Assembly: GCA_023150475.1 (NCBI GenBank)
Contig: JAKLKU010000007.1
Span: forward strand, 1 to 64,000
Direction of reading: 5' to 3'
DNA: 64,000 bases
DNA from: Planctomycetota bacterium
GTDB taxonomy: Bacteria > Planctomycetota > UBA1135 > GCA-002686595
Both the position numbers and the translations under genes were made by a program. Under the pieces are notes generated by a model. The model searched no databases, was not told the origin of the DNA, and saw only the letters and a program-made list of their open reading frames with translations. Of this stretch, positions 11,201 through 55,163 are shown in pieces (the stretch's first letter is position 1; the number at the start of each line of letters is the position of its first letter).

Positions 11201-12265
11201 ATGCGGACCGACGAGCCCGTTTGGAGCGCCAAGCAACGTCGCCGTGCGCGGCGGGTGTTGCTCGCGGCCTCGCTCGTGCTCGCGAGCGCCGCGTGGACCG
11301 GAGCGTGTGTCGTGCTCGACGCGCTCGGCTTCGTCGAGTCGCCGCTCTTGCCGACGGTCGCGGGGCCGGAGTCGCCGGAGCTGCTCGCGCGCGTGCGCGG
11401 CTCGCTCGCCATTCACGGCTACGGCGCGGACGGTCGTTTCGAGCTCCGCGAACTGCCGGACGGTGCGTCGAGTGAGCTGCGGCTCGTGGACGAGTGCGTC
11501 GCGGGTGCGGCGAGCCGTGCGGGCAACGTCGTGGCGTTGGTCGTCGCTACACGCCGCGGCGGCGGTCGCGGGCGTGGGTACGAGCTCCGCGTCGCGCCGC
11601 TCGATCGTCCGAACGAGTCGTTCGTGCTCGCGAGCGGTGCGGGCGAGCTCTTGAACTCCGCGGTGGCACTCGATGCGACCGGAAGCTGGCTCGCGGTCGC
11701 TCGGACGACGCGTGACGCCGAGTTCCACGCCTCGCGTTCCGAACTCGAGCTCTTCGATCTCGAAGAACGGCGCGCCGTGTGGTCGCGACCGCTGGAGCGC
11801 GTCGGTGCACTCGGTGTACTCGCCGGGTCCCGTGCGGTCGTGTTCACGGACTTCGACCGCGCCGAGCCCGTCGTGCGCTTGCGCGCGTTCGACGGCGCGG
11901 AGCGCCCGCTTGCGACGGGCACGTTCTGTGCGCTCGACCGCGAGCACGAGCTCGGCTTGCTCTTCGAGGCCGAGCGCTTCCGATGCGTGGCGCTGTCCGA
12001 CGGCGCGGAGCTCGTGGCCGACGCCCGTTTGCCCGGGCTCGCCGGCGCGGTGATCGGGCTGGTCTCGTTCGACGGGCCGAATTCGTCGAACGTGCTCGCG
12101 CTCTACGAAGCGCTGCCGACCGAGGGCGCGAAGCAGGCGCGGCATCGACTCGGCCTCCGCGGTCCGTCGCCGTTCTCGACGCTCAAAGTCGCCGACCTAC
12201 GCACGGGCTCGTTCGCCACGCTCGTCTCGCAACCGCTCGAGACCGGCTCGTTCTTGTTCGACTGA
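11201..12265 (+). CDS. Hypothetical membrane-anchored protein
   Basis: A 354-residue protein if translation begins at the ATG at 11201; an in-frame upstream start at 11159 would add 14 residues. An N-terminal membrane anchor (about residues 16-39, VLLAASLVLASAAWTGACVV) is followed by short beta-like segments such as LRVAPLDRPNESFVLASG, SWLAVARTTRDAEF and AVVFTDFDRAEP. These suggest a beta-propeller-like extracytoplasmic domain, but no family is recognised. It may form a unit with the FG-GAP lipoprotein gene downstream. Confidence 0.65.
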   Translation: MRTDEPVWSAKQRRRARRVLLAASLVLASAAWTGACVVLDALGFVESPLLPTVAGPESPELLARVRGSLAIHGYGADGRFELRELPDGASSELRLVDECVAGAASRAGNVVALVVATRRGGGRGRGYELRVAPLDRPNESFVLASGAGELLNSAVALDATGSWLAVARTTRDAEFHASRSELELFDLEERRAVWSRPLERVGALGVLAGSRAVVFTDFDRAEPVVRLRAFDGAERPLATGTFCALDREHELGLLFEAERFRCVALSDGAELVADARLPGLAGAVIGLVSFDGPNSSNVLALYEALPTEGAKQARHRLGLRGPSPFSTLKVADLRTGSFATLVSQPLETGSFLFD

Positions 12266-51589: not shown

Positions 51590-52486
51590 ATGGAGCTCGA
51601 TCAACTGCGCGGATTCGTTGCGGCGTCCGAGGAAGGCAGCATCTCGCGGGCCGCGGTCCGTCTGCACGTCACGCAACCGGCGCTGAGCCGCCAGATCGGT
51701 CGGCTCGAGCGCGAGCTCGGCGTCGATCTCTTCGCGCGCGTCAAACGACGCATCCATCTCACCGAAGCCGGTCGTTTCTTCCTCGTGCGCGCTCGCCGGA
51801 TCGTCTGCGACGCCGAAACCGGCGTGCAGCAGCTCAAGGAGCGCTACGGCCGCGCGAAGCGGGTCTTCCGACTCGGCGTGCTCTCGGCGTTCCTCGACGA
51901 CGTCGTCGCTCCGGCGGCGCGCGAGCTCGCGCGTTCGGCGCCGAAGGTCCGGCTCGCGCCGTTCGAGCTCACGCCGCGCGAGGCGCTCGATCGTTTGCGC
52001 GCCGGAGAACTCGACGCGGTGCTCTCGGGCAACGTCGACGCCGCCGAGCGCGAGCTTTTCGTCGTGCGCCGACTGGTGCGCCATCCGCTCGCGGCCGTGC
52101 TGCCCGCCGAGCATCGGCTCGCCGCGGCGCGGACGATCTCGCTCGCCGAGCTCGCGGACGACCCGTTCGTGTCGCTCTCCGATGCGTTCTTCCCCGGCCG
52201 GCGCGCGTTCCTGGTCGCAACCTGCGAAGCGGCGGGCTTCACGCCCGAGATCGCGCACGAAGTCGATTCGCTCGGCCTGTGTTTCGCCGCGGTCGCGGCG
52301 GGCGACGGAGTTGCACTTTCGCCGCACCACAGTCGCAAGTTGCCGCACGCGGGCTGCGTGTTCGTCGCGCTCGCGCCGCCGGTGCCGCAAGCCGAGCTCT
52401 TCCTCGTGCGGCCGCGCGGCGCGGCGGGCGACGAATGCGCGCGGCTCGAGCAGGCGCTCGCGGCGCACGCCGCGCGACTGGGGTAG
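51590..52486 (+). CDS. LysR family transcriptional regulator
   Basis: A 298-residue regulator. The N-terminal winged helix-turn-helix is typical (MELDQLRGFVAASEEGSISRAA, LHVTQPALSRQIGRLERELGVDLFAR, LTEAGRFFLVRAR). The effector domain spans about residues 92-295 (FRLGVLSAFLDDVVAPAAREL, LRAGELDAVLSGNVD, HPLAAVLPAEHRLA). It is divergent from the pirin gene with a T-N11-A operator between them. Its stop overlaps a TAGCAT element before the next gene. The effector cannot be inferred. Confidence 0.93.
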   Translation: MELDQLRGFVAASEEGSISRAAVRLHVTQPALSRQIGRLERELGVDLFARVKRRIHLTEAGRFFLVRARRIVCDAETGVQQLKERYGRAKRVFRLGVLSAFLDDVVAPAARELARSAPKVRLAPFELTPREALDRLRAGELDAVLSGNVDAAERELFVVRRLVRHPLAAVLPAEHRLAAARTISLAELADDPFVSLSDAFFPGRRAFLVATCEAAGFTPEIAHEVDSLGLCFAAVAAGDGVALSPHHSRKLPHAGCVFVALAPPVPQAELFLVRPRGAAGDECARLEQALAAHAARLG

Positions 52487-52489
52487 CAT
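52484..52489 (+). promoter_or_regulatory. TAGCAT -10-like element
   Basis: TAGCAT, which also contains the lysR stop codon, lies ten bases before the ATG at 52500. It is the same hexamer and context as before the gene at 33400. Confidence 0.35.
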
Positions 52490-52499
52490 CGACGCCTCG

Positions 52500-53540
52500 A
52501 TGACGCACACGGCACACCGTTGGGCTTGGTCGCTCCCCGCGCTCGCGCTCGGCGGGCTCGTCTGGGCCGCGCATCGAGCGCGCGCGAGCTCGGAGACGAC
52601 GCGCGCCGCGCTCGCGTTCGTCGAGCGGCTCGACGAGAGCCAGCGCGCGAAGCTCGAGTTCGCTTTCGGCGACGCGTATCGCCGCGACTGGCACTTCGTG
52701 CCGCGCGAACGACGCGGGCTCGCGCTCGCCGACCTGGATCTCGAGCAACGCGGGTGGCTGAAGCGTTGGCTCGACGCTGCGCTTTCGACGCGCGGCCTGG
52801 CGAAGGTCGACGGCGTGCTCGAGCTCGAGGCGCTCCTGCGCGAGCTCGAGTCGACGCCGGAGCGTCCGGCGATCGGCCGCGATCCCGACCGCTACGTGAT
52901 CGCGCTCTTCGGCGAACCGAGCGACAGCACGCCGTGGGCGTGGCGCTTCGAAGGTCATCACCTGTCGCTTTCGTTCACGGTGATCGATGGACACGTCGCG
53001 TCGACGCCGTTCTTCGTCGGCGCGAATCCGGCGCGCGTCCCGAGCGGGCCGCTGACCGGCAAGCGCCTGCTCGGCGAAGAGGAGGACGCGGCGCGCGCGT
53101 TCGTGAAGTCGCTCGACGACGTGCAGCGCTCCGTCGCGCTGCCCGCCGGCGAAGCGCCGGCCGACGTGCTGCTGCAGCCCGGCCGCAAGGCGAGCTTCCT
53201 CGAGCCGGCGGGCATCGGCGCGAGCGCGCTCGACGCGGCGCAGCGCGAAGCGTTGGTTTCCTTGGTCGAGCTCTACGCGTCGAACCTCGAGCCCGACCTC
53301 GCCGCTCACGCGCTCGCCGCGCTGCGGGACGACGGCGCGGAGAGCCTGCGTTTCCTCTGGCTCGGCGGAGTCGAAGACGGCGAGCCACACTACTGGCGCG
53401 TGCAGTCGCAGCGCTTCGCGATCGAGCTCGACAACACGCAGAACGGCGCGAACCACGCGCACACGTTGTGGCGCGACTTCGCGAATGACTTCGGCGAGGA
53501 CGATCTCACGCGTCACTACGCCGAGGAGCACTCGAAGTAG
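52500..53540 (+). CDS. DUF3500 family protein
   Basis: A 346-residue protein with an N-terminal export segment (WAWSLPALALGGLVWAAHRARA). It matches DUF3500: RAALAFVERLDESQRAKLEFAF, RDPDRYVIALFGEPS, the hallmark WAWRFEGHHLSLSFTVIDG, LLGEEEDAARAFVKSLDD and the end DNTQNGANHAHTLWRDFANDFGEDDL. The biochemical role of the family is not known to me; the conserved His and Asp residues suggest metal binding. A TAGCAT element ten bases upstream suggests its own promoter. Confidence 0.9.
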   Translation: MTHTAHRWAWSLPALALGGLVWAAHRARASSETTRAALAFVERLDESQRAKLEFAFGDAYRRDWHFVPRERRGLALADLDLEQRGWLKRWLDAALSTRGLAKVDGVLELEALLRELESTPERPAIGRDPDRYVIALFGEPSDSTPWAWRFEGHHLSLSFTVIDGHVASTPFFVGANPARVPSGPLTGKRLLGEEEDAARAFVKSLDDVQRSVALPAGEAPADVLLQPGRKASFLEPAGIGASALDAAQREALVSLVELYASNLEPDLAAHALAALRDDGAESLRFLWLGGVEDGEPHYWRVQSQRFAIELDNTQNGANHAHTLWRDFANDFGEDDLTRHYAEEHSK

Positions 53541-53548
53541 CGCTCGGA

Positions 53549-53797
53549 TCAGCCGAGGCGCTTCTCGAGCGCGGCGACGATCTCGTCCTCGTCCGGCCAG
53601 CCGCCGCCGAAGATCGCCTTCAGGAAGCTCTCGTCCTTCGACGCCACGAGCTCATCGTCGGCGAGGACGTCGAATTGGCCGGCGACGCCGCGCTCGAACT
53701 CGACGGTTAGGTCGAGCTCGTGCTTGATCTTCGCGGCGAGACTCGCCGCGCGGTTGCGATAGCCTCACGAACCGCAGAAGACGATGCGGACGCGCAT
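53549..53797 (-). CDS. SelW/Rdx-family selenoprotein (in-frame UGA read as selenocysteine)
   Basis: An 82-residue thioredoxin-like protein if the TGA at 53765-53767 (codon 11) is read as selenocysteine. The N-terminus MRVRIVFCGSU then GYRNRAASLA carries the CxxU redox motif of SelW/Rdx proteins at the right place. The rest fits the family: KIKHELDLTVEFERG, then GQFDVLADDELVASK and PDEDEIVAALEKRLG, ending at TGA 53549. Past the UGA no other stop or frameshift occurs. A hairpin starting 14 bases after the UGA fits a bacterial SECIS. It begins two bases after the stop of the Dabb gene and is surely co-transcribed. Ordinary gene callers stop at the UGA and miss it. Likely role: small thiol-selenol oxidoreductase. 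Confidence 0.88.
53732..53750 (-). promoter_or_regulatory. Bacterial SECIS-like hairpin
   Basis: On the minus strand CGCGGCGA pairs perfectly with TCGCCGCG around the loop GTC, beginning 14 bases after the in-frame UGA; the loop starts 22 bases after it. A G at the start of the loop and a distance of about 16-37 bases fit the bSECIS pattern that recruits SelB. Confidence 0.75.
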
Positions 53798-53799
53798 GA

Positions 53800-54102
53800 T
53801 CAAAAGTCGAACGCGATGACGCCGTCGAGTCCGCCGTCGAGCACCTTCAACACGGCGGCCTTCACTTTTTCGTGCTCTGGGTGGAAGAGGTAGAGGTCGC
53901 GTTCCTTCGCGTTCGTGAACGTCATCAGGAAGCCGTAGTTGAAGCCCTTGTTCAGACCCTCAGGCGACGAGTAGGGGCCCCACGCGTACGACTTCAGACC
54001 CTTGACGTGCTGCTTCATGCTCCCGATCGCGGTGAAGGTCTTCTCGATCGTCGCTTTGGACGTGCGCGGCTTGATGCGCAACAAAACCATGTGGTGGATC
54101 AT
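53800..54102 (-). CDS. Dabb (stress-responsive alpha/beta barrel) protein
   Basis: A 100-residue dimeric alpha+beta barrel (Dabb) protein. It opens with MIHHMVLLRIKPRTSK, the usual first strand with His, and has KGLKSYAWGPYSSPEGLNKGFNYGFLMTF, RDLYLFHPEHEKVKAAVLKVL and a last strand GVIAFDF. The start is the ATG at 54102. It is the first gene of a two-gene operon with the SelW-like selenoprotein. Dabb proteins include stress proteins and small heme- or aromatic-binding enzymes; the substrate is unknown. Confidence 0.88.
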   Translation of the reverse strand: MIHHMVLLRIKPRTSKATIEKTFTAIGSMKQHVKGLKSYAWGPYSSPEGLNKGFNYGFLMTFTNAKERDLYLFHPEHEKVKAAVLKVLDGGLDGVIAFDF

Positions 54103-54197
54103 CGGGGGCTCGCTTCGACTCGCGGTGGTTGGGGGAGCGCGCGATGGTAGCGCGCGGCCGCGCTTGACGCCTACGGCGGACGTCGGAGACTGGAGGC

Positions 54198-55163
54198 GTG
54201 GGCTCGCGACTCGCAACGCTGGCGCTCGTCGTCTCGGCCGCATGTACGCCGCGTGCGGCCGACGACGCCACTGCCGTGCTCGCCGCCATGGTCGCCGAAG
54301 GCAAGACGTTCCTCGTGCCCGCGGGCGAGCGCTGGCAAGTCGACGGGTTCGGGAGCGACTCGGACACCGTCGGTGCCATCGTGCTCGAGCTCAACGGCTT
54401 CACGCGCGTGACTGCGTGGCCGGCGCGCGACGGCCGGCGGATCGAGCTCGCGAAGCGCATCGAGCTCGCCGCGGGCGACCGGCTGAGCGTGCACGGCGGT
54501 GCGAGCGAGGAACTCGACGCCTATGCGAGGCTCGTGCGCGTGCCGGAGCGGCGCGACGAGCGTGACGCGACGCGCGCCACTGCCGAGCTCGCAGATTGGG
54601 AGACTCGCACCGGGCCGTCGACGCGCGTCGTGCGCGGCGACACCGGCGAGTACGCGCGGGCGAGTGCTTGTCTCTCGACGCGTGCAAGTTGTTGGGGCAC
54701 CGAACCGGAACGCGATGTCGTGCTCTGGGCGATCTGGGACGATGGCCTCGTGGTGTTCCGCGTCGAGCCGACGCTCGCACGCGGCGCATACGAAGTCGGG
54801 CGGGTCACGCGCGAGCGAGCGCGAGAACTCTGCGCGACCTGGGCGTCGTTCTTGCGAGAACTTCCACGCGACGCGCCGGGCGTGCGCGGCTTCGGCACCG
54901 CCGACATGCGTGTCGCCGTGGACGGCGAGACCGGGTTCGTCGCCGCGGAGTTCGCCGCCGACACGTTGCGCGAGTGGGTCGCGACCGGCCGCACGCCCAA
55001 CCCGTGCGAGCGCGAGCCGAGCGACGCCGTGTCGGAGCTCCACGCCTCCGTGTTCGCCGCCGCACGCGCAGGTGTCGCGTGCGAGTTTCCCAAGCTCACC
55101 CTCGACGGCCCGCGCCGTGCCGCGTTCGAAGACTGCCAGCCGTCGATCCGGAGCAAACCGTGA
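54198..55163 (+). CDS. Hypothetical lipoprotein
   Basis: A 321-residue protein starting at a GTG, with a short lipoprotein signal (LATLALVVSAACTPR). The mature part has no family I recognise: a beta-like N-terminal part (VGAIVLELNGFTRVTAW, RIELAAGDRLSVHGG) and later VVLWAIWDDGLVVFRVEP and RELCATWASFLREL. The last roughly 45 residues (ASVFAAARAGVACEFPKLTLDGPRRAAFEDC) recur as a fragment at 55867-56034. The stop overlaps the GTG of the next gene. Confidence 0.65.
   Translation: MGSRLATLALVVSAACTPRAADDATAVLAAMVAEGKTFLVPAGERWQVDGFGSDSDTVGAIVLELNGFTRVTAWPARDGRRIELAKRIELAAGDRLSVHGGASEELDAYARLVRVPERRDERDATRATAELADWETRTGPSTRVVRGDTGEYARASACLSTRASCWGTEPERDVVLWAIWDDGLVVFRVEPTLARGAYEVGRVTRERARELCATWASFLRELPRDAPGVRGFGTADMRVAVDGETGFVAAEFAADTLREWVATGRTPNPCEREPSDAVSELHASVFAAARAGVACEFPKLTLDGPRRAAFEDCQPSIRSKP

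What the first reader, a model, noticed from the sequence alone, without database searches (positions are those of the whole stretch)
53549..53797. Hidden SelW/Rdx-like selenoprotein gene with in-frame UGA and SECIS-like hairpin
Seen: an 82-codon frame starting two bases after the Dabb gene is intact except for a TGA at codon 11, exactly at the U of a C-G-S-U motif followed by GYRNRAASL. The rest keeps the SelW/Rdx pattern (GQFDVLADDELVASK, PDEDEIVAAL). A perfect 8-bp hairpin with loop GTC starts 14 bases after the UGA. Known: SelW/Rdx proteins carry CxxU or CxxC, and bacterial SECIS loops lie about 16-37 bases after the UGA with G at the loop start. Inference: this organism uses selenocysteine.
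Basis: partly seen in the sequence, partly recalled or inferred. Interest (0 to 1): 0.93.

Follow-up and report, generated by a model that had tools for sequence, protein, structure and literature searches.

The report
Hidden SelW-like selenoprotein gene
A small SelW-family gene in this Planctomycetota genome is interrupted by a UGA stop codon that is likely read as the rare amino acid selenocysteine; the gene is easily missed by annotation, but it is a member of an already known protein family.

Summary
On the minus strand (53797 to 53549) lies an 82-codon Rdx/SelW gene, intact except for UGA at codon 11, the U of C-G-S-U. The genome has selA, selB, selD and tRNA-Sec; its selD and an fdhA-like gene also carry in-frame UGA at Sec contexts. 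A search of 199 related genomes (own included) gave 73 matches in 68: 70 have UGA at this codon, 3 have Cys (this genome's second SelW paralogue and its two same-genus orthologues). The hairpin 14 bases after the UGA is kept by compensatory changes, many at wobble positions, scores in 22 of 22 UGA-bearing loci outside the model's training set, and is lost in the Cys paralogues. Within the genus the frame after UGA is under purifying selection (dN/dS about 0.2). The fold model matches solved SelW-family structures. So: a new member of a known kind, a bacterial SelW-like selenoprotein, in a longer subclade where all 30 genome rows have Sec (two database proteins there have Cys). Decoding and redox role are inferred. 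Side result: three relatives with UxxU, a form reported for eukaryotic SELENOW but not listed for prokaryotes in the review passages I read.

The parts
53549..53797 (-). selW-like CDS (82 codons plus stop), one in-frame UGA
   Evidence: translation with TGA read as U; Pfam Rdx 43.3 bits over cut-off 22.6; TIGR02174 37.4 over 34.2
53765..53767 (-). UGA codon 11, predicted selenocysteine
   Evidence: same position is TGA in 70 of 73 matches, own gene included
53765..53776 (-). CxxU active-site motif (C-G-S-U)
   Evidence: the two columns are invariant in alignment A3, 36 rows, U written as C (the three UxxU rows are not in A3)
53732..53750 (-). SECIS hairpin, 8 bp, loop GUC at 53742-53740 (A-GUC-U)
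   Evidence: -13.8 kcal/mol for the hairpin alone
53600..53632 (-). segment (about residues 56-66, ending FGGG) that the shorter SelW clade lacks
   Evidence: alignment A3
53800..54102 (-). Dabb-domain gene just upstream, two bases before the selW ATG (start codon chosen by me); possible co-translated partner in this genus
   Evidence: PF07876 68.4 bits; found upstream in both other same-genus genomes that have the gene, 94 and 91% identical, and in none of the other fetched loci at E 1e-3
52182..53540 (+). convergent DUF3500 gene (true start probably later); downstream neighbour, not part of the system
   Evidence: PF12006 257 bits

Best explanation
It is a SelW-like (Rdx family) gene whose in-frame UGA is predicted to be decoded as selenocysteine, which would give an 82-residue thioredoxin-fold protein with a CxxU site. 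Shown by sequence: the Rdx domain, the UGA at the U of CxxU, the conserved and covarying hairpin after it, the Sec machinery genes in the genome, and purifying selection after the UGA within the genus. Inferred: SelB carries Sec-tRNA-Sec, binds the A/G-GU loop of the hairpin while the UGA is in the ribosome, and Sec is inserted. Also inferred: ribosomes reach the ATG from the Dabb gene, whose stop lies two bases upstream; and the product is a small thiol/selenol redox protein, in which Cys8 and Sec11 can form a selenenylsulfide.
For: Sec machinery in G000: tRNA-Sec 72.7 bits (ARAGORN also calls tRNA-SeC, anticodon TCA), selB 337 bits, selA 497 bits, selD 326 bits with its own in-frame TGA in context AACAGUAGK, fdhA-like gene 671.1 bits over cut-off 666.25 with TGA in context NRTUHAPSV. 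TGA at codon 11 in 70 of 73 matches from 68 of 199 genomes, own included. Covariation on 65 distinct sequences: 92.7% of cells paired (shuffled 76.2), 74 cells changed on both sides (shuffled mean 26.4, 0 of 500 as high); pairs 21-33 and 24-30 join codon wobble positions. Loci outside the training set: 22 of 22 UGA-bearing ones score 24.6 to 66.2 bits at the UGA. Cys paralogues keep 2-3 of 8 pairs. dN/dS after UGA 0.11/0.44, 0.12/0.59, 0.05/0.27 within the genus. Database homologues P0005 and P0006 have Cys at codon 11. The hairpin meets the published bacterial SECIS rules (PMC13188914, section 5 read). AlphaFold model pLDDT 88.5 matches SelW-family structures, TM-score up to 0.84 by query length.
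Against: No protein-level proof. Single-sequence folding is not better than shuffles. Across genera dN/dS is higher, 0.41 to 0.76 in the seven pairs, so the selection evidence rests on the genus. The Sec trait is so common here (selA matched in 178 of 199, tRNA-Sec over cut-off in 176 of 199) that co-occurrence says little; 3 of the 68 positive genomes (G132, G152, G174) show no selA match, though each has a tRNA-Sec over cut-off. The stricter NCBIfam equivalog NF041051 is not reached (48.8 against 88 bits). Model R1 does not pick up selD on L055. By eye no clear ribosome-binding site precedes the ATG.
Confidence: 0.95

Rival explanations
1. A pseudogene: a nonsense mutation broke a CxxC SelW gene and the rest has not yet decayed.
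For: One TGA interrupts an otherwise intact frame; the genome has an intact Cys paralogue.
Against: The same TGA is in 70 of 73 matches, across families of the phylum; dN/dS about 0.2 after the TGA within the genus; the hairpin covaries.
Confidence: 0.02
2. The UGA is a true stop and a shorter protein starts after it, as gene callers wrote for relatives.
For: The protein database holds near relatives as 58-59 aa proteins starting after the UGA, P0003 and P0004.
Against: The stretch before the UGA and the CxxU motif are conserved, and the first strand and the active site of the fold would be lost.
Confidence: 0.02
3. The organism reads UGA as an ordinary amino acid such as Trp (a changed code).
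For: UGA is in frame in three genes looked at.
Against: Those UGAs sit at Sec sites of SelW, SelD and an FdhA-like gene; the Dabb and selW frames both end in TGA; homologues have Cys, not Trp, here; a tRNA-Sec with anticodon TCA is present.
Confidence: 0.005
4. A sequencing or assembly error made TGA from TGC.
For: The genome is a draft of 85 contigs.
Against: Two other assemblies of the same genus and many further ones have TGA at this codon.
Confidence: 0.005

Closest known systems
Bacterial SelW-like selenoproteins (Rdx, PF10262; TIGR02174 CXXU_selWTH)
   Same: Rdx domain, CxxU, one Sec, in-frame UGA with a SECIS directly after it; listed as CxxU with one Sec in PMC13188914 (passages); [quoted passage not shown]
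   Different: Belongs to a longer subclade (mostly G after U, GQFDV, GGGWPD tail) that is separate from the shorter CxxUN[YF] clade (97/93 support); misses the Campylobacter-type equivalog cut-off.
Mouse SelW (PDB 2npb) and bacterial relatives (3dex, 2p0g, 2fa8)
   Same: Same fold by model comparison and by sequence profile.
   Different: Foldseek identities of the 23 hits at E up to 0.001 are 15-30%; 3dex, the one shown in alignment, has Cys where Sec stands here.
fdhA-like SECIS of the same genome
   Same: R-GU loop: GGUCU in the fdhA-like gene, AGUCU here; spacing 18 and 22 bases (column count).
   Different: Different stem sequence; model R1, trained on SelW hairpins with the window's own among them, returned only the selW place in the genome (150 of 15437 candidates scored).

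Membership tests
SelW/Rdx family (PF10262, TIGR02174) | Profile match over the curated cut-off | tested here: met
   43.3 over 22.6; 37.4 over 34.2
SelW/Rdx family (PF10262, TIGR02174) | CxxU or CxxC after the first strand | tested here: met
   C8-G-S-U11; columns invariant in the 36 rows of A3 when U is written C
SelW/Rdx family (PF10262, TIGR02174) | Thioredoxin-like fold of SelW | tested here: met
   predicted model with U written as C, pLDDT 88.5; 23 PDB chains at E up to 0.001, all from the eight entries that the sequence profile also finds
SelW/Rdx family (PF10262, TIGR02174) | Thiol/selenol redox activity | not testable with these tools
   needs biochemistry
NF041051 SelTWH_Campy equivalog | Score over 88 bits | tested here: not met
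   48.8 bits
Bacterial selenoprotein gene | In-frame UGA at a site where homologues have Cys or Sec | tested here: met
Bacterial selenoprotein gene | SECIS: loop of 3-9 nt with G in the first two places, stem 4-16 bp, 16-37 nt spacing, energy at most -7.5 | tested here: met
   rules from PMC13188914 section 5; loop GUC, 8 bp, 22 nt, -13.8; covariation
Bacterial selenoprotein gene | selA, selB, selD and tRNA-Sec in the genome | tested here: met
Bacterial selenoprotein gene | Selenium in the product | not testable with these tools
   75Se or mass spectrometry needed

The most novel reading that the evidence does not exclude
The gene belongs to a SelW subclade that is an old paralogue of ordinary SelW and almost always keeps Sec. 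In this genus the ordinary paralogue swapped Sec for Cys and lost its SECIS while this one kept both, so it does a job for which Cys serves poorly. Elsewhere in the family Cys8 turned into a second Sec, apparently three times, making bacterial diselenide (UxxU) SelW proteins.
Probability: 0.35. Interest if true: 0.5.

Novelty: new member of a known kind. Interest (0 to 1): 0.33.

Why it matters
It shows a real gene that standard annotation can cut or lose at its UGA, and adds a well-supported SelW-like selenoprotein and a covariation-backed SECIS for Planctomycetota. The pair of paralogues in one genome, one Sec with SECIS and one Cys without, is a natural control for what Sec buys in SelW.

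Tried and rejected
Pseudogene, changed code, true stop with a shorter protein, and sequencing error were considered and rejected (see rivals). Rfam gave no match in the window at gathering scores and, for 53400-54300, six matches at E up to 10, all under their gathering scores. Single-sequence folding did not single out the hairpin. A search of the own genome with SECIS model R1 found no further place at E up to 1 (150 of 15437 candidates scored). The '2 TGA' rows G402, G374 and G445 turned out to have a second TGA at codon 71-72, the normal end, not UxxU. A first script printed minus-strand loci in the wrong orientation and was corrected. Rows dropped: the hairpin alignment A1 holds 66 of 70 UGA rows; L038, L046, L066 and L091 were left out because they have one more codon before the hairpin (with that shift they keep 8, 7, 8 and 7 of 8 pairs). 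A2 holds 25 of the 30 rows that a simple motif rule called the longer type: the same four and L078 were left out; that rule put L036 and L078 on the other side than the tree does. A3 holds 36 of the 73 matches.

Full report
What is there. The frame lies on the minus strand: ATG at 53797, 82 codons, stop at 53551-53549, with TGA at codon 11. The product, with TGA read as U, starts MRVRIVFCGSUGYRNRAASL. Pfam gives Rdx (43.3 bits, cut-off 22.6) and NCBIfam gives CXXU_selWTH (37.4, cut-off 34.2). The gene starts two bases after the stop of a Dabb-domain gene; that pair is kept in the two other same-genus genomes that have the gene and was not found at the other fetched loci.

Which organism. 

Does the organism use selenocysteine? 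Yes by gene content. The genome (5.94 Mb, 85 contigs, 91% complete) has tRNA-Sec, selB, selA and selD, all over cut-off. Two further genes have in-frame TGA at known Sec contexts (contexts recalled): selD itself and an fdhA-like gene. The fdhA-like hairpin has loop GGUCU at 18 bases; the selD one has loop GUG in a 7-bp stem at 33 bases. Model R1 does not find the selD hairpin, as expected of a model trained on SelW genes.

Relatives. In 199 related genomes (own included), 68 had 73 matches at E up to 0.001. Of these 73, 70 have an in-frame TGA at the U of CxxU, and 3 have Cys. In a phylum-wide draw of 392 genomes, 144 matched; of the 150 matches listed (the list was cut), 143 have at least one in-frame TGA and 7 have none. 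Of those 7, one is the genome's own Cys paralogue. Four others were fetched: two have Gly and two have Cys at the site. The remaining two were not read. Beyond the 70, the TGA position was read in 15 more loci and is at CxxU in 15 of 15. Near relatives are held in the protein database as 58-59 residue pieces that begin after the UGA (P0003, P0004), which is how such genes get lost; two more distant ones, P0005 and P0006, have Cys at codon 11.

The hairpin. On 66 UGA sequences (65 distinct), 8 pairs hold in 92.7% of cells, against 76.2% in shuffles and 28.8 to 51.0% when slid; 74 cells changed on both sides (shuffled mean 26.4, 0 of 500 as high). In the longer clade alone, 25 sequences give 95.5% and 14 such cells (mean 2.7, 0 of 500), while further pair types are not above shuffles (105 of 500). 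Pairs 21-33 and 24-30 join two wobble positions; the first switches among G-C, C-G, A-U and U-A, the second among C-G, G-C and A-U, so protein constraint does not explain them. Model R1 scores at the UGA in 22 of 22 UGA-bearing loci outside its training set: 24.6 to 66.2 bits; the two weakest, L115 and L132, have E of 0.003 and 0.004, and L111, L118 and L121-L124 are close to trained rows. Of seven loci without UGA, L054 and L137 score 18.6 and 18.9 bits and the other five (L052, L053, L136, L138, L139) give nothing at E up to 1; chance matches in the window reach 15.1 bits. The three Cys paralogues keep 2 or 3 of 8 pairs.

Selection and fold. After the UGA, codons 12-80 show dN/dS of about 0.2 in the three pairs within the genus; in the seven pairs that involve another genus it is 0.41 to 0.76. 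A model made from 18 sequences has pLDDT 88.5, and its 23 hits at E up to 0.001 are chains of the SelW-family entries that one search finds by sequence.

Tree. The gene falls on one side of a branch (97/93) with 32 rows that have mostly the longer tail: 30 from genomes, all with Sec, and the Cys proteins P0005 and P0006. The genome's own Cys paralogue falls on the other side, among Sec forms, so it most simply lost Sec (few columns, many open forks, root drawn at the midpoint). That agrees with the published view that SelW-like proteins have few Cys homologues in Sec-using organisms (PMC1794560, passages).

Extra Sec. Three matches (L035, L072, L080) have a second TGA at Cys8. They are the only extra in-frame stops read in the 73 matches, and no row ends early (shortest complete frame 71 codons), although a row has on average 19.8 codons one change from a stop. 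So errors are an unlikely cause. L035 lies in the longer clade; L072 and L080 lie apart in the other, on weakly resolved forks. UxxU SELENOW is reported for amphioxus and Ostreococcus (PMC7539508, passages). The 2026 review lists prokaryotic SELENOW-like as CxxU with one Sec (PMC13188914, passages). A search for 'selenoprotein W' with 'UxxU' gave three papers, and the passages I read in them name no bacterial UxxU SelW.

Prior work in the phylum. Sec genes and selenoproteins are known in Planctomycetes (PMC4807772, passages; 'SelW' does not occur in its main text, and its tables were not seen).

What is inferred. Decoding by SelB, coupling to the Dabb gene and the redox role rest on knowledge of the families, not on tests here.

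Noticed in passing
L035 (G131), L072 (G144), L080 (G128), codon 8 of each: SelW relatives with two in-frame TGAs (UxxU): possible bacterial two-Sec SelW proteins.
   Followed up: partly
L136 (G294) and L137 (G415): SelW paralogues with Gly at the Sec position (CVPG), in genomes that also have a UGA-bearing match.
   Followed up: partly
L052 1281-1499 (G000:C13:36280): The same genome's second SelW is a CGGC form without the hairpin: most simply a Sec-to-Cys change with loss of the SECIS.
   Followed up: yes
L140 (G000:C33:397573-399438): fdhA-like gene with in-frame TGA in the usual Sec context and an R-GU hairpin; a third likely selenoprotein gene of this genome.
   Followed up: partly
window 11504-11600 +: ARAGORN calls a 97-base tRNA-Pro(TGG), but Rfam reports nothing over gathering scores in the window; probably a false call.
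   Followed up: partly
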